DNA of 64,000 bases from Halorussus litoreus (GTDB lineage: Archaea > Halobacteriota > Halobacteria > Halobacteriales > Haladaptataceae), in the NCBI RefSeq assembly GCF_003382685.1, contig NZ_KZ859504.1, forward strand, positions 17,265 through 81,264, written 5' to 3'. The position numbers and the translations under genes were made by a program. The first letter of the stretch is position 1; each line of letters begins with the position of its first letter. Below the pieces are notes generated by a model, which worked only from the letters and a program-made list of their open reading frames with translations, was not told the DNA's origin and ran no database searches. Below are positions 4,649 through 62,636 of the stretch, one piece after another.

Positions 4649-5521
4649 CTACTCCCGGAGCCGTCCGGTCGCCAGTGCCAGCCCTCCAACCGTCCACGCG
4701 AGCAGGCTCGCGGCGTCGAGGGCGGGCGCGCCGGCCCGGACCGACGGCCCGGTCGCCGCTCCCAGCACGGTTTCGAGAACGAGTCCGCGGTAGGCGCTCG
4801 CCGGACTCACCGCCTGCAGCGCCACCACCGCGTCCGGCCCGAAAACGGCTCCCGACAGCGCGGCGAGGCTGCCGAGATCGGCCGCGACCGCGACCGGGAC
4901 CCAGACGACCGCGACCAGCGCGACCGCGCTCCGGGGCCGGTCGGCCACCGCCGAGGTTGCCAGCGCGACCGACAGCACCGACAGCCCGAACAGGGTGGTG
5001 AGCGCGACGAACCGGGCGAACAGGAGCGGCGAGTCCGCACCCCGCTGTGCCGCGTACAGCGCCGACCCTGACCCGCCCGCGAGCCACGCCAGCAGGAGGC
5101 TTGGCGCGAGCGCGACCGCGACCCCGACCGCGAGCGCCACCCCGCGACCGAGGGCGGTGCCGGCCACGACCGACGCGTCGGACGGTGGGAGCGTATCGAG
5201 GACTGCGAGTTCGCCGCCCCGGCGGTCGTCGAGCAGGACGCGATAGCCCAGTGCGAACCCCAGCACCGGGACGAGAACCTCCGCGGGCGTCGACAGCGCA
5301 ACGACGGTCGGGACGTACCCGTCGGACGCGCCAGCCGTCCACGCGAACGCGGTGAACGCGGCTGCCACGCCCGCGATGAGCGCGTGAAGCGCGGGCGTCC
5401 GCCGGACGCTCCGGAGTTCGCGGCGGGCGCGAGCGAGCGCGTGGCGCGCGTCGGTCGCGCGCGACCGACGCGCGCCGGCCTCGTGAGATCGACTCTCGTC
5501 TGCGGACTTCGCGCCGGTCAT
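4649..5521 (-). CDS. nosY: ABC transporter permease, NosY-like
   Basis: The 290-residue protein has six hydrophobic segments after an arginine-rich cytoplasmic start. It resembles the ABC-2 permeases that partner NosF. Its ATG at 5521 overlaps the TGA of the ATPase gene (5518-6222) by four bases, which indicates a coupled NosF/NosY pair. In nitrous-oxide-reducing organisms NosFY and NosD together mature the CuZ centre of NosZ. Sequence conservation in the permease itself is low, so the name rests mostly on its position. Confidence 0.75.
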   Translation of the reverse strand: MTGAKSADESRSHEAGARRSRATDARHALARARRELRSVRRTPALHALIAGVAAAFTAFAWTAGASDGYVPTVVALSTPAEVLVPVLGFALGYRVLLDDRRGGELAVLDTLPPSDASVVAGTALGRGVALAVGVAVALAPSLLLAWLAGGSGSALYAAQRGADSPLLFARFVALTTLFGLSVLSVALATSAVADRPRSAVALVAVVWVPVAVAADLGSLAALSGAVFGPDAVVALQAVSPASAYRGLVLETVLGAATGPSVRAGAPALDAASLLAWTVGGLALATGRLRE

Positions 5522-13899: not shown

Positions 13900-14274
13900 T
13901 CAGACCACCGCTCCGACCACCGCGGTCGTCAGGCTCGCCCCGACCATGCCGCCAGCCCCGACGCTGCCGAGGACCATCATCGCGCGCCGGGAGTCGGCCT
14001 CCGACCAGTCCGAGCGCCCGCCGATGTACCGCTGGAAGTTCTCGATGCCCCGGCCCGCGAACACCGACCCGGACCAACCGAGTATCGAGAAGCCGAAGAC
14101 GAGTGCGGCGACCGCGAACACCTTCTCGCTGGCGAACCGGACCGATTCACCCGAGAGGACGACCAACGGGACCGCAACCCCGGCGAGGACAGCGCCGAGC
14201 GCGAGCGCGCGGCCGATCAGCATTGCATAATCGCGGAGCGTCGGCGACGATTCGTCCGCCGAGTCCGACGCCAT
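13900..14274 (-). CDS. conserved haloarchaeal membrane protein (124 residues)
   Basis: The protein has an acidic cytoplasmic start, two membrane helices near residues 20-65, a hydrophilic loop (GRGIENFQRYIGGRSDWSEADSRRAM) and a glycine-rich C-terminal helix. I do not recognise a functional family. The ATG at 14274 lies three bases after the stop of the permease gene, so it is cotranscribed with the peptide ABC operon. A link to transport is only positional. Confidence 0.75.
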   Translation of the reverse strand: MASDSADESSPTLRDYAMLIGRALALGAVLAGVAVPLVVLSGESVRFASEKVFAVAALVFGFSILGWSGSVFAGRGIENFQRYIGGRSDWSEADSRRAMMVLGSVGAGGMVGASLTTAVVGAVV

Positions 14275-33972: not shown

Positions 33973-34004
33973 GCCGCGCTCGCGCAGTCCTGCGCGAGCG
34001 CGGC
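33973..34004. repeat. perfect 14-bp hairpin after the deacetylase gene
   Basis: GCCGCGCTCGCGCA and its exact complement are separated by four bases. A second small hairpin (CGCGGCG/CGCCGCG) lies at 34062-34080, and the gap ends with GAGGGCTTTCGG, which resembles the right end of the GAAAG...CTTTC repeat. The 268-bp gap is otherwise empty. Confidence 0.75.
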
Positions 34005-50548: not shown

Positions 50549-51079
50549 ACGTTGAGGACGCGTGGAGTTGGGACGGTTTCTAACGGATCATTTTTATTCT
50601 CGGCGTGCGCTCGCTCGTCCTTTCCATCCGGCGCGTGCTGGCGCGAGTTTATCTCGCGCCAAAACGCGCGAGGGCTGAGCATCGCAGGCCGAAGGCCGAG
50701 AAGCGCAAGCGGTTGGGGAGGACGAGGCTCTCGCGGTGCGGTTGCGGTCACGCCGAGGCTCAAGATGAAGCTAGCTTCACTGCACAACTACTTCTGTCGA
50801 AAGAGCAGCTCTTGCTAGCTACTGCTTGAGCCTCGGCGTGACCGCACCGCGACTGCACCGCACCAGCACCGCGACCGCGGGCCCCACGCCTCCCCAGCCT
50901 CCTCCCTCGCTTCGCTCGGTCGTCCCTCGCGCGCGCCGGAGTGGAATGTTCCATCGAGCGCACGCTTCTGAGGAACGGACCACCGAGCCCACGCTGTCGA
51001 AACACCCGTCCCACGAACACTCACAGAAAAACAGAGAAGCAACTACCCGAAGGCGGTCGAGAGCGAAGAGAGGCGCCAA
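50549..51079. other. 531-bp gap dominated by a large palindromic repeat
   Basis: The gap between the MazG-like gene and L40e contains the repeat at 50628-50939 and no recognised gene. Open frames across it on both strands result from the repeat and its symmetry. Confidence 0.7.
50628..50939. repeat. large dispersed palindromic repeat, copy 1
   Basis: The outer arms carry CCGGCGCG at the left and CGCGCGCCGG at the right, with CGCGCGAGGG-type blocks inside. The 102-bp core (50744-50845) is bounded by a 21-bp perfect inverted repeat beginning GCGGTCACGCCGAGG. The core has the same length as that at 60425-60526 and is about 80-85% identical by eye. A partial copy is at 10666-10760. Confidence 0.8.
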
Positions 51080-53248: not shown

Positions 53249-53662
53249 TCAGAGCCCGAGCGTCCGCCGCAGACGGCCGAGCAGTCCGGGGTCGTCGACG
53301 GGAAGCTCGCGAGCGACGGCGTCGAGTTCGTCGTCGCCGAATCGGTCGTCGTGGCGGGCCTCCACAAGCCACGACTCCCACTCGTCGGCGGTCATGGTGC
53401 CCCGCGACTCGGGGCCCCACTGCTCGACCAGCGCCTCGCGGTCGCGGAACGGGACGTCCATCTCCCCGCCGCCCCAGTACAGCGGCGAGAGTTCGAACTC
53501 GTAGTCCGCATCCTCGGCGGGCGACGCGTCCGCTGCGGACGCGTCGCCCGCCGAGGACGCGTCGTCGTCCGGAAACTGGACGCGATACGGGTAGTTCTCG
53601 TAGAGGAACACGTCCTCGGGCGTAACGGTCTCGCCGTTCGGCAGTTCGAGTTCGCGGGCCAT
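53249..53662 (-). CDS. haloarchaeal hypothetical protein with palindrome-encoded insert
   Basis: The 137-residue acidic protein starts MARELELPNGETVTPEDVFL and contains YENYPYRVQF and LSPLYWGGGEMDVPFRDREA, patterns of an uncharacterised haloarchaeal family. Residues of about 36-51 (SSAGDASAADASPAED) are encoded by a perfect 47-bp palindrome and look like an in-frame insertion in a loop. The function is unknown. Confidence 0.8.
   Translation of the reverse strand: MARELELPNGETVTPEDVFLYENYPYRVQFPDDDASSAGDASAADASPAEDADYEFELSPLYWGGGEMDVPFRDREALVEQWGPESRGTMTADEWESWLVEARHDDRFGDDELDAVARELPVDDPGLLGRLRRTLGL
53511..53557. repeat. 47-bp perfect palindrome inside a gene
   Basis: Two exact 23-bp arms beginning TCCTCGGCGGGCGACGCG flank a single central base. 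The element lies in frame within the 137-residue protein gene. Confidence 0.95.
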
Positions 53663-53745
53663 TCGATTGCGTGGTGGTAGGGTTTGGAGCGTCTTGAGGG
53701 TTGGTTCGGAATCGAGGAGACGGGGCGATAGCCGGGTCGGAAGAA

Positions 53746-54729
53746 CTACAGCAGGTCTCGATTCCGGAAGTAGAGCACGCCCGCGACCGGCGCGAGCACC
53801 GTCCAGACGAGCAGGACGACCGCGGCGAACGGGTAGCCGGTCGCTGCGGACGTGACGGACTCGCTCGGGGCCGTGACGAGCGGGTGGCCGTACTCGAAGT
53901 CCGCGAACAGCGTCGTGAGCTTCACGTAGGCGTTGAGGGGGTTGAGCCGACCGACCCAGAAGAACCACTCCGGTCGGGGGTACTGCTGTTCGACGCTCTG
54001 CATCAGGACGAACTGGATCGCGGGCCAGCCAGCCCGGAGCATGGCATACACCGCGATGACGACTGCGACCGCCCGGTTGGAGTTGTCGGCGTACGCCGAC
54101 GCGGTCAGCCCGATGCCGACGAACAGGAGCGCGTACGGGATCGACACCGCGGCGAGTCCGACCATTCCGACGAACGAGCCGTTCTGGAACGTAAACGCGA
54201 CGATGCCGCCGGTGAGCACGAGGCAGACGACCAGCGGGACGAGGACGACCGTGGCCCGCGAGCAGAACTTCCCGAGGAAGGCGTCGTCGCGGGAGTTCGG
54301 CAGGCCGAGCAGGAAGCGGACGCTCCCCGTCTCGCGCTCGCCGACCAGCGCGGCGTAGCTCCCGACGAGGCCGACCAGCGGGAGCACGAACGACAGGCCC
54401 GAGCCCACGGACATGACCGCGAGTTCCATGTCGGGGCCGACCCCAGCGGTCCGCGGGTCCGCGAGTGCGAGCGTGAGCGCGACCGCGAGAACGGTGAACG
54501 TGACGACGACGCCAGCGATCTGGGCGGGGTCGCCGAGGAAGACCAGCGCGGCGATGGCACCGACGGTGAGCAGCGCGCCGACCGCCGCGATCGCGGCCAC
54601 GTCGGCCGCGAGCGCGAACAGCCCCACGGCGACCACGGTCACGAGCGCGACGATGGCCGTCACGGCCGTCCCGGTCCGCGAGCGGTAGACGCTCGTGAGA
54701 TCGCGCAGGTAGACGTCGGTCCAGCTCAC
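53746..54729 (-). CDS. ABC-2 type permease
   Basis: The 327-residue protein has six or more membrane helices and ERETGSVRFLLGLPNSRDDAFLGK near residue 130, the loop typical of ABC-2 export permeases that contacts the ATPase. Its ATG at 54729 overlaps the stop of the ATPase gene by four bases, so the pair forms one exporter. The substrate is unknown; such haloarchaeal pairs resemble NosFY and the Cu-processing family. Confidence 0.88.
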   Translation of the reverse strand: MSWTDVYLRDLTSVYRSRTGTAVTAIVALVTVVAVGLFALAADVAAIAAVGALLTVGAIAALVFLGDPAQIAGVVVTFTVLAVALTLALADPRTAGVGPDMELAVMSVGSGLSFVLPLVGLVGSYAALVGERETGSVRFLLGLPNSRDDAFLGKFCSRATVVLVPLVVCLVLTGGIVAFTFQNGSFVGMVGLAAVSIPYALLFVGIGLTASAYADNSNRAVAVVIAVYAMLRAGWPAIQFVLMQSVEQQYPRPEWFFWVGRLNPLNAYVKLTTLFADFEYGHPLVTAPSESVTSAATGYPFAAVVLLVWTVLAPVAGVLYFRNRDLL

Positions 54730-55736
54730 GCGTCGCCCTCCATCGGCGTGGCTGAGCCGCCGTCGTCGCGGTTCGAGGCGTCGCCCGCCGCGAGTCCCGA
54801 TGCATCGCCATCGATTCCTTCGGAAGCGTCACCTTCGGTGTACTTCGAGAACACGTCCGAGAGCGACGCCTCGCGGACAGCGAAGTCCTCGAACAGGCCC
54901 GCGTCGGCCGCGGCGTTCAGCACGCGGAGCTTCGTCTCCCCGCGGCCGTCGCAGTCGACCTCGACGCGGCCGTGGCGGGCCGTCACCTCGCGGACGCCCT
55001 CGACGGCTCGCATCTCGGCGAGGAGTTCGTCCGGGACGGCCGACAGCCACACCGAGAGCGTGGCGCCCGCGCCGAGTTCGTCCCGGAGTTCTTCGACCTC
55101 GCCGACCGCCGCGAGTCGACCGTCGAGCAGGATACCGATACGGTCGGCGACCGCCTCGACCTGTTCGAGGATGTGGCTGGAGAAGAAGACGGTCGCGCCG
55201 CGGTCGGCCTCCTCGGTGACGACCTCGCGGAGCATCCGCGCGCCGTTGGGGTCGAGCCCGGTGGAGGGTTCGTCGAGCACGAGCAGGTCGGGGTCGCCGA
55301 CCAGCGCGACCGCGATGGCCATCCGTTGGCGCATCCCCTTGGAGTAGCCGCCGGCGCGGCGCTCGCGGGCCGCCTCGTCGAGCCCCACGCGGTCGAGCAG
55401 CGCGTCGGGGTCGTCGTCGGCGTCCTTCGTGTCGATGGCGTGCTGGACGTGCTCGCGCCCGGTGAGTCGGGGGTACGCGCCGTACCCCTCCAGCAGTAGG
55501 CCCGAGCGCTGCCGGACCGCGACCGACTCGCGCCGGGTGTCCCGGCCGAACACCCGGACCGCGCCGCTGGAGGGCTTCGTGAAGTCGAGCATGGCGTTGA
55601 TGGTCGTCGACTTGCCCGCGCCGTTGGGGCCGAGGAAGCCGAACACCTCGCCGCCCTCGACCGACAGCGAGAGGTCGTCGACCGCGACCACGTCGCCGAA
55701 CTGCTTGGTCAGACCGTCTATCTCGATTACTGACAT
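54726..55736 (-). CDS. ABC exporter ATP-binding protein
   Basis: The 336-residue ATPase has GPNGAGKST near residue 37, YSKGMRQRMAI near residue 133 (a variant signature), LLVLDEPSTGLDPNG near residue 157 and the switch SSHILEQVE. The C-terminal 100 residues carry the DUF4162-like domain and end in an Asp/Gly/Ala/Ser-rich tail with repeated GDAS units. It pairs with the downstream permease. The start at 55736 begins the typical MSVIEIDGLTKQFG. Confidence 0.9.
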   Translation of the reverse strand: MSVIEIDGLTKQFGDVVAVDDLSLSVEGGEVFGFLGPNGAGKSTTINAMLDFTKPSSGAVRVFGRDTRRESVAVRQRSGLLLEGYGAYPRLTGREHVQHAIDTKDADDDPDALLDRVGLDEAARERRAGGYSKGMRQRMAIAVALVGDPDLLVLDEPSTGLDPNGARMLREVVTEEADRGATVFFSSHILEQVEAVADRIGILLDGRLAAVGEVEELRDELGAGATLSVWLSAVPDELLAEMRAVEGVREVTARHGRVEVDCDGRGETKLRVLNAAADAGLFEDFAVREASLSDVFSKYTEGDASEGIDGDASGLAAGDASNRDDGGSATPMEGDA

Positions 55737-55793
55737 TGGGGACGTGTTTCGAACCCCGAAGACCGGCGAAATAAGTCTTCTCACGCTGCGATG

Positions 55794-55842
55794 GCGGGGC
55801 GGCCGGGCGGCGGCACACGATACCGCCGCCCGGCCGCCCCGC
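55794..55842. repeat. intergenic perfect hairpin, 20-bp stem
   Basis: Arms beginning GCGGGGCGGCCGGGC at 55794-55813 and 55823-55842 are exact complements with a nine-base loop. It lies 58 bp upstream of the ABC exporter ATPase start. Beyond it, the rest of the 372-bp divergent gap (55737-56108) is AT-richer and holds the promoter of peptide system 2. Confidence 0.95.
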
Positions 55843-56020
55843 TTCGGAGATTCTGCCTTCGGACTCGAAATGATTCGCAACCCTTGACCTGAAACCGCAA
55901 CGATAGGTGGCTATTCTTTCCGTCTCCATATTCTCTCTCGCATAGAATTGGAACGAAACCCGGTTTCGCGGAACAACCTCCAACAGTTCCCCATTGTTGG
56001 TGAACAACAAACACCGAAGA

Positions 56021-56026
56021 TTTATA
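56021..56026 (+). promoter_or_regulatory. TATA box of peptide ABC system 2
   Basis: TTTATA in AT-rich DNA about 25 bp before 56050 is the only clear promoter for the permease operon. A TTGTT-ggtg-AACAA dyad at about 55997-56010, just before it, may be a regulatory site. Confidence 0.5.
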
Positions 56027-56041
56027 CACGCCTGTCGGGTT

Positions 56042-56104
56042 ATGGCACGTGTGAAAGTGGCACAGGAATCCGACCGTCGTATCGACGTTCGACTCGGGGG
56101 ATAG
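56042..56104 (+). CDS. possible 20-residue leader ORF before peptide permease
   Basis: An ATG at 56042 opens a frame (MARVKVAQESDRRIDVRLGG) that ends with TAG at 56104, four bases before the GTG of the permease gene. A GGAG ribosome-binding sequence lies between. An in-frame GTG at 56051 falls almost at the transcription start predicted from the TATA box. It could be a translated leader that couples to the permease, or simply untranslated leader. Confidence 0.3.
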   Translation: MARVKVAQESDRRIDVRLGG

Positions 56105-56108
56105 GAGC

Positions 56109-57056
56109 GTGAGGTATCGCTACATCGCAATTCGACTGCTCCAGACCGTCCCGGTCCTGTTCGGCGTTTCGGTCGTGGTCTTCATCATCATCCATTCGGC
56201 ACCGGGCGACCCCGTCGTGAACATGCTCGGCATCGAGGCGACCGACGAGAACGTCGCCCAGATTCGGCAAGCGTACGGGTTGAACGACCCGCTGTACGTC
56301 CAGTACGCCAACTGGCTCGGCGGCATTCTCCAAGGCGATCTCGGCCAGTCGCTCACCCAGAACCGTTCGGTCACCGCGCTCATCGCGAGCCGACTCCCCG
56401 CGACGCTGTTCCTCGCGGTCGCGTCGATGCTCATCGCGGTCGTCATCGCCATCCCGGCCGGGATAATCAGCGCGGTTCGAAAGGGTTCGGCCAGCGACTA
56501 CGGCGTCACGCTCGGCGCGCTGACCGGCATCTCGATCCCGAACTTCTGGCTCGGCCTCATCCTCATCCTGCTGTTCGCGCGGACGTACAACGTCTTCCCG
56601 CCCGGCAACTACGTCCCGCCCTCCGAGGACCCCGTGGCGGCCATCAGGCACGTCGCGCTCCCGGCGATCACGGTCGGGACGGCGTTCGCCGCGCTGCTCG
56701 CCAGACAGACCCGCTCGTCGATGCTCGACAACCTCAATCAGGAGTACGTCAAGATGGCCAAGTCGAAGGGCCTGGGCTCCCGGAAGATCTTCGTCCGGCA
56801 CGCGCTCAAGCAGGCGCTGCTCCCCGTCATCACGGTCGCGGGCCTCCAGTTCGGCTACCTGCTCTCGGCGACGGTCGTCGTCGAGCAGGTGTTCGCGTGG
56901 CCCGGGATGGGCCGGCTCATCTGGTCGGCGGTCCAGCAGCAGGACTACCCGACCGTTCAGGGGACCGTGCTCGTCGTCGCCACGCTGTTCGTGCTCATCA
57001 ACGTGATCGTCGACCTCACCTACTCCTACCTCGACCCACGGGTGAGCGCATCGTGA
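56109..57056 (+). CDS. peptide-type ABC permease, DppB/OppB family (system 2)
   Basis: The 315-residue permease starts at GTG with RYRYIAIRLLQTVPVLFGVSV and HSAPGDPVVNMLG, and has the ATPase-contact loop NQEYVKMAKSKGLGSRKIFVRH near residue 215. Six membrane helices are evident. A GGAG sequence lies three bases before the GTG. Its TGA overlaps the next GTG by four bases. It is the channel half of a second complete peptide-type importer. Confidence 0.92.
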   Translation: MRYRYIAIRLLQTVPVLFGVSVVVFIIIHSAPGDPVVNMLGIEATDENVAQIRQAYGLNDPLYVQYANWLGGILQGDLGQSLTQNRSVTALIASRLPATLFLAVASMLIAVVIAIPAGIISAVRKGSASDYGVTLGALTGISIPNFWLGLILILLFARTYNVFPPGNYVPPSEDPVAAIRHVALPAITVGTAFAALLARQTRSSMLDNLNQEYVKMAKSKGLGSRKIFVRHALKQALLPVITVAGLQFGYLLSATVVVEQVFAWPGMGRLIWSAVQQQDYPTVQGTVLVVATLFVLINVIVDLTYSYLDPRVSAS

Positions 57057-58021
57057 GTGGGGAGAATCCAACCGGCGGCTCCGCTGGAACCGACGACTCG
57101 GCGGGACAGACGGCAGACGAGTCCACGAAGCCCGAGAGTCCAACTGGCTTCCGGCGGACGTGGCGGGGCTTCCGCGCGCACGGCCTCGCGGTCGCGGGCC
57201 TCGTCGTCGTTTCGGTCGTGACGCTCGTCGGCATCTTCTCGTACGTCGACGACGCCTTCCTCGGGAACTCGCTCATCACGTCGGTCTACTACAGTCCGTT
57301 CGCGCCGGAGTTCATGCCGCTGCAGGGGCCGAGCATGGCCCATCCGTTCGGGACCGACACGCTCGGTCGGGACGTGCTCGCCCGGACCATCTACGGCGCG
57401 AAGGTGTCCATCCAGGTCGCGCTGACAGCGGTGCTCGTGGCCGCATCGCTCGGCTCGCCGCTGGGCGTCGTCGCGGGCTACCTCGGCGGCACCGTCGAGA
57501 CGGTCGTGATGCGGACGGTCGACGTGATGCTCGGGTTCCCCGCGCTCGTGCTCGCCATCGGGCTGGTCGCGGCGCTCGGGTTCAACCTCACGAACGTCAT
57601 CATCGCGCTCGGCATCGTCTACGTCCCGCAGTTCGCTCGCATCGCGCGCAGCACCGCGCTCAGCGTCTCGAACGAGGAGTACGTCGACGCCGCGAAGGCG
57701 CTGGGCTACTCGACGCCCCACATCGTGTTCCGCGAGGTGCTGCCCAACTGCATCTCGCCGCTGCTCGTACAGGCGTCGCTGCTGATGGCGTTCGCAATCA
57801 TCGCCGAAGCGTCGCTATCGTTCCTCGGGCTGGGCGTCCAGCCGCCGACCCCGACGTGGGGCCAGATGGTCTCGGACGGGAGCGGCTACCTCACCTCGGC
57901 CCCGTGGATCTCGCTGTTCCCGGGGGCGGCCATCTTCGTGACGGTGCTCGGGTTCAACCTCATCGGCGACGGCCTGCGCGACGCACTCGACCCGCGTGAG
58001 AGCGCGGAACGGAGGTTCTGA
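57053..58021 (+). CDS. peptide-type ABC permease, DppC/OppC family (system 2)
   Basis: The 322-residue permease begins with a polar, Gly/Ser/Thr-rich cytoplasmic stretch, then a membrane helix, AHPFGTDTLGRDVLARTIYGA near residue 97 and EYVDAAKALGYSTPHIVFREV near residue 205, the EAA-like loop. It starts at a GTG overlapping the preceding stop and is followed after one base by the ATPase gene, so the three genes are an operon. Confidence 0.92.
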   Translation: MSGENPTGGSAGTDDSAGQTADESTKPESPTGFRRTWRGFRAHGLAVAGLVVVSVVTLVGIFSYVDDAFLGNSLITSVYYSPFAPEFMPLQGPSMAHPFGTDTLGRDVLARTIYGAKVSIQVALTAVLVAASLGSPLGVVAGYLGGTVETVVMRTVDVMLGFPALVLAIGLVAALGFNLTNVIIALGIVYVPQFARIARSTALSVSNEEYVDAAKALGYSTPHIVFREVLPNCISPLLVQASLLMAFAIIAEASLSFLGLGVQPPTPTWGQMVSDGSGYLTSAPWISLFPGAAIFVTVLGFNLIGDGLRDALDPRESAERRF

Positions 58022-58022
58022 G

Positions 58023-60200
58023 ATGACTGATGCACTACTTTCGGTCCGCGATCTGACAACCGAGTTCGCCACCCCGAACGGGAGCATCCGCGCCATCGAG
58101 GACGTAAGCTTCGACGTCGAGTCGGGCGAGAAGCTCGGCATCGTCGGCGAATCGGGCTCCGGCAAGAGCGTCACCGCCCGGTCGATCATGGGTCTGCTCG
58201 ACGAGAACGGCCGCATCGCGAACGGGTCGGTCGAACTCGGCGGGCACGACCTCACGTCACTGTCCGAGCGCGAACTCACCGACGTGCGCGGCACGGAGGT
58301 CGCGATGATCTTCCAGGACCCGATGTCGTCGCTGACGCCGGTGCTGACGGTCGGCACCCAGATCACCGAGACCATCCTCGAACACCGCGACGTGACGAAG
58401 GCCGAGGCCCGCGAGCAGGCCATCGACCTGCTCGAACAGGTCCGGATTCCGGACCCCGAATCGGTCATCGACACGTACCCCCACCAGCTCTCGGGCGGGC
58501 AGCGCCAGCGGGTGCTCATCGCCATCGCCATCTCCTGCGACCCGGACCTGCTCATCGCCGACGAGCCGACCACCGCGCTCGACGTGACCATCGAGGCCCA
58601 GATCCTCGACCTGCTCGAAGACCTCGTGAGCGACCGCGAGACGAGTCTGGTCCAGATCACCCACGACCTCGGCGTGGTCGCGGAGACGTGCGACCGGGTC
58701 GCGGTGATGTACGCCGGGCGCGTGGTCGAGCAGGGGCCGGTCTCGGAGGTGTTCGTCGAGCCGCGCCATCCCTACACCGCGGGGCTGCTCCGGTCGACGC
58801 CGCGCATCGCCGACGTGGAGCCCGAACTGCTCGCGGGCAACGTCCCCGATCCCGGCGAGCGCCCGGTTGGCTGCAACTTCGCGCCGCGGTGTCCCCACAG
58901 CACGGACGACTGCCACGTGGACGACCCGCCGCTCGAACCGGCGGGGGCAGCGTCGCGCCCCTCCGCGGAGGGGCGCGACGCTGCCCCCGCGGAAGGTAGG
59001 GAGGTCGCTTCCGGAGAGGGCCGCGAAGCCGCATCCGCGGAGGGCCGCGAAGTCGCCTGCGTGCGGACCGACGACATCGGAACCCTCGAACCGATTCCCG
59101 AGGCGAAACGCGAGCAGACCGCGACCCCCGAGGTCGGCCCGACCATCGTCGAGGGCGAGCGCGTCGAGAAGGACTTCAGCTCGGCCGACTCGCTGCTCGA
59201 CCGGCTCCTGCCCGGCGGGGAACCGCCCGTCAGGGCCGTCGACGGTGTCGACCTCTCGCTCGCGGAGGGCGAGACGCTGGGGCTGGTCGGCGAGTCCGGG
59301 TCGGGCAAGACGACGCTCGGCCGGCTCCTCCTCGAACTCACCGACCGGACGGGCGGCGAGATCCGCTTCGACGGGCGGCCGCTCGCCGAGGTGCCCGAGC
59401 AGGAGCTCCGGAGCCGCATCCAGTTCGTCTTTCAGGACCCCAACTCCTCGCTCAACCCGAGACAGACCGTGGGGAAGATCCTCCGGTTCGCGATCAAGAA
59501 GCACGACGCTGCCACCGATGTGGACGACCGCATCGCCGAACTGCTGACCGAGGTCGGGCTCGACCCCGAGACGAGACACGACTACCCGCACCAGCTCTCG
59601 GGCGGGCAGAAACAGCGCGTGGGGGTCGCTCGCGCGCTCGCGGTCGACCCGGACGTCATCGTGGCCGACGAGCCCACCAGCGCGCTCGACGTGAGCGTGC
59701 AGGGCCAACTGCTCGACCTGCTCGACGACATCAAGCGCGAGCGCGGACTCTCGATGGTCTTCATCAGCCACGACCTCTCGGTCATCCGCCACATCGCCGA
59801 CCGCGTGGCGGTGATGTACCTCGGCCGCATCGTCGAGGTCGGCGACACCCGCGGGCTGTTCGGCGCGCCCCAGCACCCCTACACGGAGGCGCTACTCAGC
59901 GCGGTGCCCGACCCCGACCCGGGGGCGGAAGTCGACCGCATCGTGCTCGACGGCGAGATTCCGGACCCGAAGCGACCGCCCGAGGGCTGTAACTTCGTGA
60001 CTCGCTGCCCGGAGGCAATGGCCGAGTGCGAGAGCCACGACCCGGAGCTCGTGGCGAACGACGACGGCGAGGTGGCGTGTCTGCTCCACCACGACGTGGT
60101 TCGGGGCGAGAGCGCGGACGGGGCTACTGTCAGTGACGGCCCGCCCGAGTCCGAGGCCGGTGACGCCGCGCGGGCCGACGGCAGCGGGGACTCGGTCTGA
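58023..60200 (+). CDS. fused double ABC ATPase, DppD-DppF type (system 2), with palindrome-encoded insert
   Basis: The 725-residue protein has two ATPase domains. Domain 1 has GESGSGKS near residue 42, [10 protein letters not shown] near 157 and [12 protein letters not shown] near 177; its C-terminal tail has [14 protein letters not shown]. Domain 2 (from about residue 380) has [18 protein letters not shown] and [12 protein letters not shown], with tail CNFVTRCP. In domain 1 the tail is interrupted between PPLEP and VACVR by about 30 Ala/Gly/Glu/Arg-rich residues, the first part encoded by a perfect 50-bp palindrome and the rest by 24-bp-like repeats. This lengthens the spacing to the last tail cysteine, part of the Cys set that can hold a 4Fe-4S cluster in this family. 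All ATPase motifs are intact. Confidence 0.9.
58941..58990. repeat. 50-bp perfect palindrome inside the ATPase gene
   Basis: Exact 25-bp arms beginning GCGGGGGCAGCGTCGCGCCC meet with no loop. It encodes about residues 307-323 of the double ATPase, in frame. Confidence 0.96.
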
Positions 60201-60764
60201 GAGAGACGGGTTTCGTCGGGTGGGAGTATCGGACGCCAATTTTCGACTTCGTCTGCTGGTTTGTCCGTTCCACTGTGCACGCGCTAGCTCAGCCCTCCAG
60301 ACCGGCGCGTGCGGCCGCGACCTCTGTGTCGCGCCAAAACGCGCGAGGGCTGAGCATCGCAGCGAAGCGAGAAGCGCAAGCAGTTGGGGAGGACGAGGCC
60401 GTTGCGGGGCGGTGCGGTCGCTGTGCGGTCACGCCGAGGATCAAGCGAAAGTTAGCTTCACGGTGTGATCACTTCTGCCGGAAGAGCGGCTCGGGCTAGC
60501 TACTGCTTGCGCCTCGGCGTGACCGCAACCGCACAGCACCGCAGCCTCAAACCTCCCCCGCCTCCTGCGTTGCTCGGCCTCCGCTTCGCTCCGGCCTGCG
60601 CTACTCGTCCCTCGCGCGCGTTGCTCGCGCGCGCCGGAATCAAAACACAGTGTTGCTCGGAGAAGGGCTAGAGTACCGCTCTAAGAAAGCGGAGAGACCT
60701 CCGTTGAGCGACGCTGACGAACGAATGCGGAAAAAGAAACCCAAATCAGCCGAAAGCGCAGCGT
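60201..60764. other. 564-bp convergent gap with a large repeat
   Basis: Between the double ATPase and the convergent binding-protein gene there is no recognised gene. The gap contains the large palindromic repeat at 60302-60638. Its symmetry could form a strong stem at both mRNA 3' ends. Confidence 0.7.
60302..60638. repeat. large dispersed palindromic repeat, copy 2
   Basis: The arms begin CCGGCGCG and end CGCGCGCCGG, and the 102-bp core (60425-60526) is bounded by inverted GCGGTCACGCCGAGG. The core length equals that of copy 1 at 50744-50845. Several positions in the stem differ in pairs, such as CTCAAG/CTTGAG versus a mismatched equivalent, so fold conservation is partial. Confidence 0.8.
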
Positions 60765-62393
60765 TCAGTTCACCGAGGCCGAGTCGAGCGAGCGGAACGA
60801 CCCGTTCGCGTACTGCTCGTAGCCCTCGATGCGGTTCGAGATGCCCTGGATGCGGTCGGGGTAGTACGTGTACACCGAGTACGCCTCGTCGTAGACAATC
60901 TTCTGGATCTCGTTGATGATCTCTCCACGCGCCTCCGGGTCGACGGTCCGGCGCTGCTCTTCGAGGAGGCCGTCGAGTTCCTCGTTGCTGATGTTCCAGA
61001 CGTTCAGGCCGTCGGTGTGGTAGAGGTACAGGAGCGTGTCCGGGTCGCCGAACCAGGTCCAGTTCGAGATGGCGATCTCGTAGTCGCCCTCGGTCTCCTG
61101 GGAGAAGAACGCGTTGCCTTCTAGCGTCTGGATGGACGCGTCGATCCCGACCTGACCCAGCATGCTCTGGACGAGCGTGGCCGTCCGCTCGTGGCGCGAA
61201 CTCGTCGAGGTCTTGATGGTAAGGGAGAGGTCGTTGTAGCCCGCGTCGTCGAGCAGCGACTGGGCCTGCTCGGCGTCGCCGTTCGGATGGTTGAAGTCCG
61301 AGATGGAGTCGTTGTACTGCGGGAGCGAGTTCGGCAGGACCGACTTCGCGGGGGTGCCGTACCCCTGCAGGACGGTCTGGGTGATCTGTTGCTTGTCGAG
61401 CGCCCACGCGATGGCCCGCCGGACCTTCCGGTCGCCGAGCGGTTCGACGTCGGTGTTGAAGTCGATGCGGCCCGAGCTGACCCCGCCGGTCGTGATGACG
61501 CTCGCGTTGCCCGAGTTCTCGACGCGGTCGGTGAACTGCGCGGGCATGCGGTCGAGGAGGTCGATGCTGCCGGCTTCGAGCTGAGCCACCTTCGAGGAGT
61601 CCTCGGGCAGGATGCGGAACTCGATCCGGTCGATGTTGGGCTCGCCCTCTTTCCAGTAGTCGTCGTACTTCTCGAGGACTGCCTTGTTACCGGAGTCCCA
61701 CGAGGTCAGTTCGAACGGCCCGGTACCGACAGGGTTCTGGTTGTAGTCGTCGCCGTACTCGTTCATCGCCGTCTCCGAGAGCGGCCACATGACCGCGTGG
61801 ACCTTGTAGAGGAACGGCGCGTACGGCTCCGAGAGGTCGAAGCGGACGGTCGTGTCGTTCTCAACCACCACGTCCTCGACCGCTGCGACGTAGTTCTTCC
61901 GCGGGTTCTCGTTGTTCTGGATCCAGTCGTAGGTGTACTTCACGTCGTCGGCGGTGAAGTCCTCGCCGTTGTGGAACGTGACGCCCTCTTCGAGTTCGAA
62001 GACGAACTGGGTGTCGGACTCGCGCGACCAGTCCGAGGCCAGGTCTGGCACGACTTCGGCGTCGGAATTGAGGTTGACGACGTTGTCGTAGATGAGGGTG
62101 TACACCTTGTTCGAGTCAAAGTCGGTGTCGCGGGCTGGAATCAGGTCCCAGCCACCGTTCGTGATGCCGATGCTGACGGTCGTCGGGTCGCCGCCGTCCC
62201 CGCCGTCGTCGCTGGTCGTGTCCCCGCCGCTGGATTCGGTCGTGTCGTCCCCACCGTCCTCGGTCGTTTCCTGGTCCTCCGAGTCACCGCCGCCCATACA
62301 ACCCGCGAGCGATACCGCACCAGCCCCACCGAGTCCGGACAGGACTCGACGCCGGGACGGTGTCAGCCAGTTCGTATTTGTGTCGTCAACCAT
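60765..62393 (-). CDS. peptide-type ABC substrate-binding lipoprotein (system 2)
   Basis: The 542-residue binding protein has a Tat leader (PSRRRVLSGLGG) and lipobox LAGC near residue 32, then an acidic Asp/Thr/Gly tether to about residue 72. The family 5 body has LEEGVTFHNGEDFTADDVKYTYDW near residue 130, PVGTGPFELTSWDSG near 220 and KVRRAIAWALDKQQITQ near 320. It is convergent with the permease/ATPase operon of system 2, for which it is the likely receptor. The ATG at 62393 begins the leader; a GTG at 62408 fits the TATA box (near 62430) as a leaderless start and is an alternative. Confidence 0.92.
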   Translation of the reverse strand: MVDDTNTNWLTPSRRRVLSGLGGAGAVSLAGCMGGGDSEDQETTEDGGDDTTESSGGDTTSDDGGDGGDPTTVSIGITNGGWDLIPARDTDFDSNKVYTLIYDNVVNLNSDAEVVPDLASDWSRESDTQFVFELEEGVTFHNGEDFTADDVKYTYDWIQNNENPRKNYVAAVEDVVVENDTTVRFDLSEPYAPFLYKVHAVMWPLSETAMNEYGDDYNQNPVGTGPFELTSWDSGNKAVLEKYDDYWKEGEPNIDRIEFRILPEDSSKVAQLEAGSIDLLDRMPAQFTDRVENSGNASVITTGGVSSGRIDFNTDVEPLGDRKVRRAIAWALDKQQITQTVLQGYGTPAKSVLPNSLPQYNDSISDFNHPNGDAEQAQSLLDDAGYNDLSLTIKTSTSSRHERTATLVQSMLGQVGIDASIQTLEGNAFFSQETEGDYEIAISNWTWFGDPDTLLYLYHTDGLNVWNISNEELDGLLEEQRRTVDPEARGEIINEIQKIVYDEAYSVYTYYPDRIQGISNRIEGYEQYANGSFRSLDSASVN

Positions 62394-62591
62394 GTGATTC
62401 GTGAGCACTATGGTACGACCAGGTAGTTAAATCTTTATTCAATTGGAACTCTATTTGCCAAAACAAAATTCAATCAGGCAGCGTATTCAAGAAGTAGTTC
62501 CGCTCTCACCTTCTCTCCCTCGTAAAATGTTCCAAGCGACTGGGGTGCCGTAGAACGGGCCACGAATCCTCGCCGAGGTCACGAATCCGCT

Positions 62592-62636
62592 CTGGCACGC
62601 GTGGCGGCCGCAGATTGCGGCCGCCACGCGTGCCAG
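62592..62636. repeat. intergenic perfect hairpin, 21-bp stem
   Basis: Arms beginning CTGGCACGCGTGGCGGCCGC at 62592-62612 and its complement at 62616-62636 flank a three-base loop. It lies in the 344-bp divergent gap (62394-62737) between the binding-protein gene and the beta-CASP gene. The left part of the gap is AT-rich promoter DNA of the binding protein. Confidence 0.96.

What the first reader, a model, noticed from the sequence alone, without database searches (positions are those of the whole stretch)
53511..62636. Cluster of long perfect GC-rich palindromes, inside and between genes
Four perfect palindromes of 45-50 bp occur within 9.2 kb: 53511-53557 (23-bp arms), 55794-55842 (20-bp arms), 58941-58990 (25-bp arms, no loop) and 62592-62636 (21-bp arms). 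Their sequences differ, so they are not simply copies of one element. Chance does not explain exact arms this long. Perfect symmetry implies recent formation or gene conversion between arms. Possible causes are template-switching events at forks or a mobile palindromic element of variable sequence.
Basis: seen in the sequence. Interest (0 to 1): 0.75.

Follow-up and report, generated by a model that had tools for sequence, protein, structure and literature searches.

The report
Genus-wide burst of perfect DNA palindromes
Genomes of some salt-loving archaea (Halorussus) carry many perfect mirror-image DNA hairpins that related archaea lack, and comparison with sister species suggests that each is made locally by copying a short stretch of DNA backwards next to itself, a known kind of replication error that seems unusually frequent here.

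Summary
All four palindromes are real and exact, two inside genes and two between; the window holds two more (arms 17 and 15). They are far beyond chance. They are not a local oddity: 1.13 Mb sampled from the same genome (a Halorussus species) holds 52 palindromes with arms of 15-30 bp and loops up to 20 bp, where matched random sequence gives none (loops up to 8). Other Halorussus species range from none to about 240 per Mb, in assemblies including complete plasmids, while none (loops up to 8) was found in 450 kb from 12 other haloarchaeal genomes or plasmids. Palindrome sequences are mostly unrelated to each other, so this is not one mobile element. Alignment with sister species shows how several arose: one arm is the old sequence, and the other is its inverted copy, either overwriting the old bases without changing length or inserted in frame beside a short pre-existing inverted repeat. 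Most are perfect or nearly so, hence young or continually re-perfected. This fits quasipalindrome template switching during DNA synthesis, known from E. coli, yeast and primates. New here is the scale, the restriction to one archaeal genus, and species-specific arm lengths. The cause is unknown; loss of Rad50 is not it.

The parts
53511..53557 (.). perfect palindrome, 23-bp arms, 1-nt loop, in a disordered linker of the 137-aa protein on the minus strand
   Evidence: the linker is absent in Halorussus marinus and differs in H. halobius
55794..55842 (.). perfect palindrome, 20-bp arms, 9-nt loop, between divergent genes
   Evidence: no orthologous sequence in H. halobius
58941..58990 (.). perfect palindrome, 25-bp arms, no loop, in the linker between the two ATPase domains
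   Evidence: absent in H. halobius
58962..59057 (+). degenerate tandem array of 24-bp units coding for (S/G)AEGREVA-type repeats; its first unit makes up most of the right arm of palindrome 58941-58990
   Evidence: H. halobius aligns to about one unit
62592..62636 (.). perfect palindrome, 21-bp arms, 3-nt loop, between divergent genes
5443..5476 (.). perfect palindrome, 17-bp arms, no loop, near the 5' end of a called gene
33973..34004 (.). perfect palindrome, 15-bp arms, 2-nt loop, between genes
53249..53662 (-). gene for a 137-aa conserved hypothetical protein, frame intact through the palindrome
   Evidence: no Pfam family
58023..60200 (+). gene for a 725-aa double ATPase of an oligopeptide ABC transporter, frame intact through the palindrome
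   Evidence: PF00005 twice, PF08352 twice

Best explanation
The palindromes are the products of a local mutation process, quasipalindrome template switching. During DNA synthesis the growing strand at a short imperfect inverted repeat folds back (or switches to the opposite strand) and copies a stretch of its own recently made sequence in inverted order, then returns to the normal template. One arm is therefore the original sequence and the other a fresh inverted copy. The copy either replaces the old bases without changing length (arm rewriting) or is added as an insertion beside a small pre-existing inverted repeat (hairpin extension). Insertions and rewrites survive where tolerated: between genes, in disordered linkers and protein ends, or in frame. 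SHOWN: the palindromes, their genome-wide excess, the variation between species, and, at several sites, an ancestral arm beside a derived arm. INFERRED: that a polymerase switch at a fork or repair tract makes the copy, and that some Halorussus-specific feature of replication or repair makes it frequent.
For: Excess: 52 palindromes with arms >=15 bp (loops <=20) in 1.13 Mb; for loops <=8, 48 observed against 0 in Markov-5 sequence. Ancestral arm against new arm, mismatches to the ortholog majority: L087:8081-8130 (16 orthologs, no indel) left 8/21, right 2/21; L076:11346-11381 (14 orthologs) left 2/18, right 14/18; L086:11152-11194 left 5/21, right 14/21; G005 L245:11275-11309 (one comparator, no indel) left 11/16, right 4/16; orthologs of L086:11152 carry a short native inverted repeat, and this genome has a 12-bp in-frame insertion that, but for one base, is the inverted copy of the ancestral flank; at L076:11346 the left arm is conserved coding sequence, and the inverted right arm occurs only in some species. 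Window 58941: the right arm belongs to a tandem array continuous with sequence kept in H. halobius, and the left arm is its inverse. Of 48 hairpins with arms >=20 bp, 28 are perfect and 15 have one mismatch. About two thirds of the palindromes in H. salilacus lie outside genes: 16 of 24, 4.1 expected.
Against: Only about five sites have orthologs close enough to tell the old arm from the new; many others lie in linkers or spacers that do not align. L085:5279-5325 is mixed: left 8/22 and right 6/22 mismatches, with the outer part of the left arm rewritten and the inner part changed on both sides. No mutation was seen as it happened. The arm-length peak at 21-27 bp in this genome, and about 15-17 bp in G005, is not explained by a generic template switch. 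No responsible gene was identified; a Rad50-like ATPase is present in all 18 genus genomes.
Confidence: 0.72

Rival explanations
1. Mobile palindromic element: a small hairpin element of variable sequence inserts into genes and spacers, as Rickettsia palindromic elements do.
For: Many copies, inside genes and between them, frames intact. A few of the 52 do sit in a dispersed intergenic repeat with a hairpin (L074:7482, L079:8760).
Against: Only 5 of 52 arms have a near-full-length match elsewhere in the sampled genome, all short and GC-rich. Arms are shared with the ancestral local sequence. Two rewritten arms show no insertion at all.
Confidence: 0.05
2. Selected functional hairpins: regulatory sites, RNA structures or terminators kept by selection.
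For: Enriched outside genes, and some lie just after genes (L086:7299). Perfect pairing is frequent.
Against: Positions are not conserved in sister species, sequences are unrelated, many lie inside genes and some between divergent genes. Number per genome varies from none to hundreds per Mb among congeners. Haloarchaeal terminators are not known to need hairpins (own knowledge).
Confidence: 0.1
3. Old palindromes kept perfect by continuing conversion between arms, rather than newly formed ones.
For: Perfect and one-mismatch hairpins dominate; the same was noted for nematomorph mitochondria (PMC6649704). The palindrome at L076:11346 is partly shared by several species with different centres.
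Against: The palindromes at 58941 and 53511 are absent or different in H. halobius, and other palindromes are absent in orthologs, so most are not old.
Confidence: 0.1
4. Sequencing or assembly artefact.
For: This draft (75 contigs) has poly-G/poly-C runs beside N gaps (L048 just before 14182, L037 17182-17245), as can happen where reads fail.
Against: Frames run through the palindromes, the one clean coding insertion is a multiple of three, and independent assemblies, including complete plasmids of H. salilacus, H. vallis and H. caseinilyticus, show the same excess.
Confidence: 0.03

Closest known systems
Quasipalindrome-associated template-switch mutagenesis (E. coli; e.g. PMC7202029)
   Same: An imperfect inverted repeat becomes a perfect one by intramolecular copying of one arm from the other
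   Different: Studied as rare reporter events; here a large number of palindromes with arms of 15-30 bp has built up across archaeal genomes
Template-switch mutations creating hairpins and protein changes (yeast PMC8604942; RNA genes and primates PMC8794818, PMC7954356)
   Same: Arm homogenisation and new reverse-complement repeats, clustered substitutions in genes
   Different: Those surveys found scattered events (39 genes in the S. cerevisiae lineage); here the density reaches tens to over two hundred palindromes per Mb in one genus
Coding palindromes in mitochondrial genes of Nematomorpha (PMC6649704)
   Same: Many perfect inverted repeats inside working genes, nearly all perfect, gained and lost between species, cause unknown
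   Different: Mitochondrial, up to 284 bp, in conserved coding regions; here chromosomal and plasmid DNA of archaea, shorter, and often outside genes
Rickettsia palindromic elements
   Same: Palindromic sequences within reading frames
   Different: Those are copies of one mobile family (own knowledge); here sequences are unrelated and locally derived

Membership tests
Quasipalindrome template-switch products | perfect or near-perfect closely spaced inverted repeat | tested here: met
Quasipalindrome template-switch products | one arm ancestral, the other its inverted copy | tested here: met
   at four sites; mixed at L085:5279; most other sites could not be aligned
Quasipalindrome template-switch products | a shorter or imperfect inverted repeat at the site in relatives | tested here: inconclusive
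   clear at L086:11152 and in some species at L076:11346; not resolved elsewhere
Quasipalindrome template-switch products | arises during DNA synthesis and responds to replication or exonuclease defects | not testable with these tools
   needs mutation experiments
Mobile palindromic element (Rickettsia-type) | copies share a common sequence | tested here: not met
   47 of 52 arms have no near-full match elsewhere in the sampled genome
Mobile palindromic element (Rickettsia-type) | clean insertion into an empty site | tested here: not met
   two rewritten arms without indel (L087:8081, G005 L245:11275)
Nematomorph-type coding palindromes | both arms encode conserved protein regions | tested here: inconclusive
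   true for a few (L087:8081, L085:5279); many lie in linkers or spacers

The most novel reading that the evidence does not exclude
Halorussus has a genus-specific change in replication or repair that makes inverted template switching so frequent that species fill their genomes with perfect palindromes of a characteristic length, reshaping proteins and spacers; the lineage would be a natural hypermutator for this one class of mutation.
Probability: 0.45. Interest if true: 0.78.

Novelty: new variant of a known kind. Interest (0 to 1): 0.6.

Why it matters
Perfect palindromes are usually counted as hazards that cells remove. A genus of archaea that accumulates them, with sister species ranging from none to hundreds per Mb, is a natural experiment on what controls template switching and on how cells live with hairpins. 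The variation between close relatives makes the responsible gene mappable. It also shows a route by which proteins gain new linker sequence in one step.

Tried and rejected
Rad50 loss: the zinc-hook model is too insensitive here; the Rad50-type ATPase domain with a long open frame is present in all 18 genus genomes, so rejected. The genome-contig scan with the 137-aa protein found only two relatives, which at least named G001 as H. halobius. Rfam found no RNA family in the two stretches with the dispersed hairpin repeat. Literature search found no report of palindromes in Halorussus or of this process at scale in archaea; absence from a partial library is weak evidence.

Full report
OBSERVATION. 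The four palindromes are present exactly as described. The window holds two more with arms of at least 15 bp, 5443-5476 and 33973-34004. Simulated sequence of matched composition reached 14-bp arms at most. The palindromes at 53511 and 58941 lie inside intact reading frames: a 137-aa protein without a Pfam family and a 725-aa double ATPase of an oligopeptide transporter. Those at 55794 and 62592 lie between divergent genes.

ORGANISM AND SCALE. The window lies in a draft genome of 3.84 Mb in 75 contigs. I sampled 1.13 Mb of the genome. It holds 52 perfect palindromes with arms of 15 to 30 bp and loops of at most 20 (46 per Mb), which extrapolates to about 175 in the genome. For loops of at most 8, 48 were seen and fifth-order Markov sequence gave none. 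Even loops outnumber odd ones; the cause was not tested.

OTHER SPECIES. With the same criteria (arm >=15, loop <=8) the density varies strongly inside the genus: G005 23 in 100 kb, G012 5 in 20 kb, G001 1 in 200 kb, G004 none in 80 kb, G016, G007 and G008 none in 40 kb each. Complete plasmids of named species agree: H. salilacus 24 in 100 kb, H. vallis 7 in 50 kb, H. caseinilyticus 6 in 50 kb, H. halophilus none in 50 kb, and low-GC plasmids of H. aquaticus and H. limi none in 50 kb each. Outside the genus, five genomes (100 kb) and seven plasmids (350 kb: Halomicrococcus, Halobaculum, Haladaptatus, Haloferax, Haloarcula, Halorubrum, Salinirubellus) gave none; one 18-bp palindrome with a 10-nt loop lies in G031. 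Some samples are small, and plasmids need not represent chromosomes.

HOW THEY AROSE. The informative evidence is alignment with orthologs. (a) L086:11152-11194, in a gene for a membrane phosphatase-like protein (my reading of the sequence, not tested): orthologs have a short inverted repeat, and this genome has a 12-bp in-frame insertion which, but for one base, is the inverted copy of the ancestral flank. (b) L087:8081-8130, in an amidohydrolase-like gene (likewise my reading): 16 orthologs align without indel; the right arm keeps the family sequence (2/21 mismatches to the majority) while the left arm is changed (8/21) so as to mirror it. (c) L076:11346-11381: the left arm is conserved coding sequence (2/18), the right arm is not (14/18); inverted right arms occur in some species (L255, L256, L257, and a variant in L264) and are missing in others. 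(d) In another species, G005 L245:11275-11309: left 11/16 and right 4/16 mismatches, without indel, against a single comparator. (e) L085:5279-5325 is mixed (8/22 and 6/22): the outer part of the left arm mirrors the conserved right arm, the inner part is changed on both sides. Over (a)-(d) the old arm differs from orthologs at 13 of 76 positions and the new arm at 47 of 76 (sums figures).

THE WINDOW'S OWN CASES. At 58941 the right arm is built mostly from the first unit of a degenerate 24-bp tandem array that runs into sequence conserved in H. halobius, which lacks the palindrome and most of the array. The left arm is the inverse of the right. This is the same pattern, read from the site itself. 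At 53511 the palindrome fills a linker that is absent in H. marinus and different in H. halobius; the old arm cannot be told. The two intergenic palindromes could not be aligned with orthologs.

AGE AND PLACEMENT. Of 48 hairpins with arms >=20 bp in the sample, 28 are perfect, 15 have one mismatch and 5 more than one. Either most are young or they are re-perfected; both fit template switching. In H. salilacus, with the gene coordinates of its public record, 16 of 24 palindromes are not fully inside genes where 4.1 are expected; in this genome my simple gene caller, which under-calls, puts 22 of 52 inside genes. Palindromes within genes often lie in Ala/Ser/Asp/Glu-rich linkers or near protein ends. 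This is the pattern expected of mutations filtered by selection.

WHAT IT IS NOT. The arms do not form a sequence family: 47 of 52 have no near-full match elsewhere in the sample. A few short ones (L074:7482, L079:8760, probably L081:14133) belong to a dispersed intergenic repeat and are a separate matter. An assembly artefact is unlikely because frames are intact and independent assemblies agree.

CAUSE. Unknown. A Rad50-type ATPase is present in all 18 genomes of the genus searched, so loss of Rad50 is not the explanation; Mre11, exonucleases and polymerases were not compared. The typical arm length differs between species (21-27 bp here, 15-17 bp in G005), which a generic template switch does not predict and which may point to a species-specific step.

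PLACE IN KNOWLEDGE. The mechanism class is known: quasipalindrome template switching in E. coli (PMC7202029), yeast (PMC8604942) and RNA genes (PMC8794818). The nearest parallel in outcome is the coding palindromes of nematomorph mitochondria (PMC6649704), whose authors name template switching as one possible mechanism without knowing why the repeats are so common there. I found no account of such a burst in an archaeal genus, in a library that holds only part of the literature.

Noticed in passing
L074:7482-7515, L079:8760-8795, L249:6737-6770 and many other copies: A dispersed intergenic repeat of the genus (GAAAGCCC...CGGTCGCTCAGCG...) carries a central hairpin whose stem differs between copies while staying paired (TATTCGGCGCGC.../...GCGCGCCGAATA and variants). 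It also occurs on Halorussus and Haladaptatus plasmids and has no Rfam match.
   Followed up: partly
window 50604-50828 and about 60250-60660: Two copies of another dispersed intergenic repeat: window 50604-50828 aligns to the H. halobius place orthologous to about 60300-60511.
   Followed up: no
L037:17182-17245 (just before the window) and L048 about 14130-14180: Runs of G and C, one next to a gap of N, probably sequencing failures in this draft.
   Followed up: no
C9:22892-31194 against C2 (160 kb): Palindromes are unevenly spread: six in 8.3 kb of C9, one in 160 kb of C2, which has lower GC (58.6%).
   Followed up: partly
L268 near its match: The orthologous linker in G010 also contains an N gap flanked by G and C runs.
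   Followed up: no
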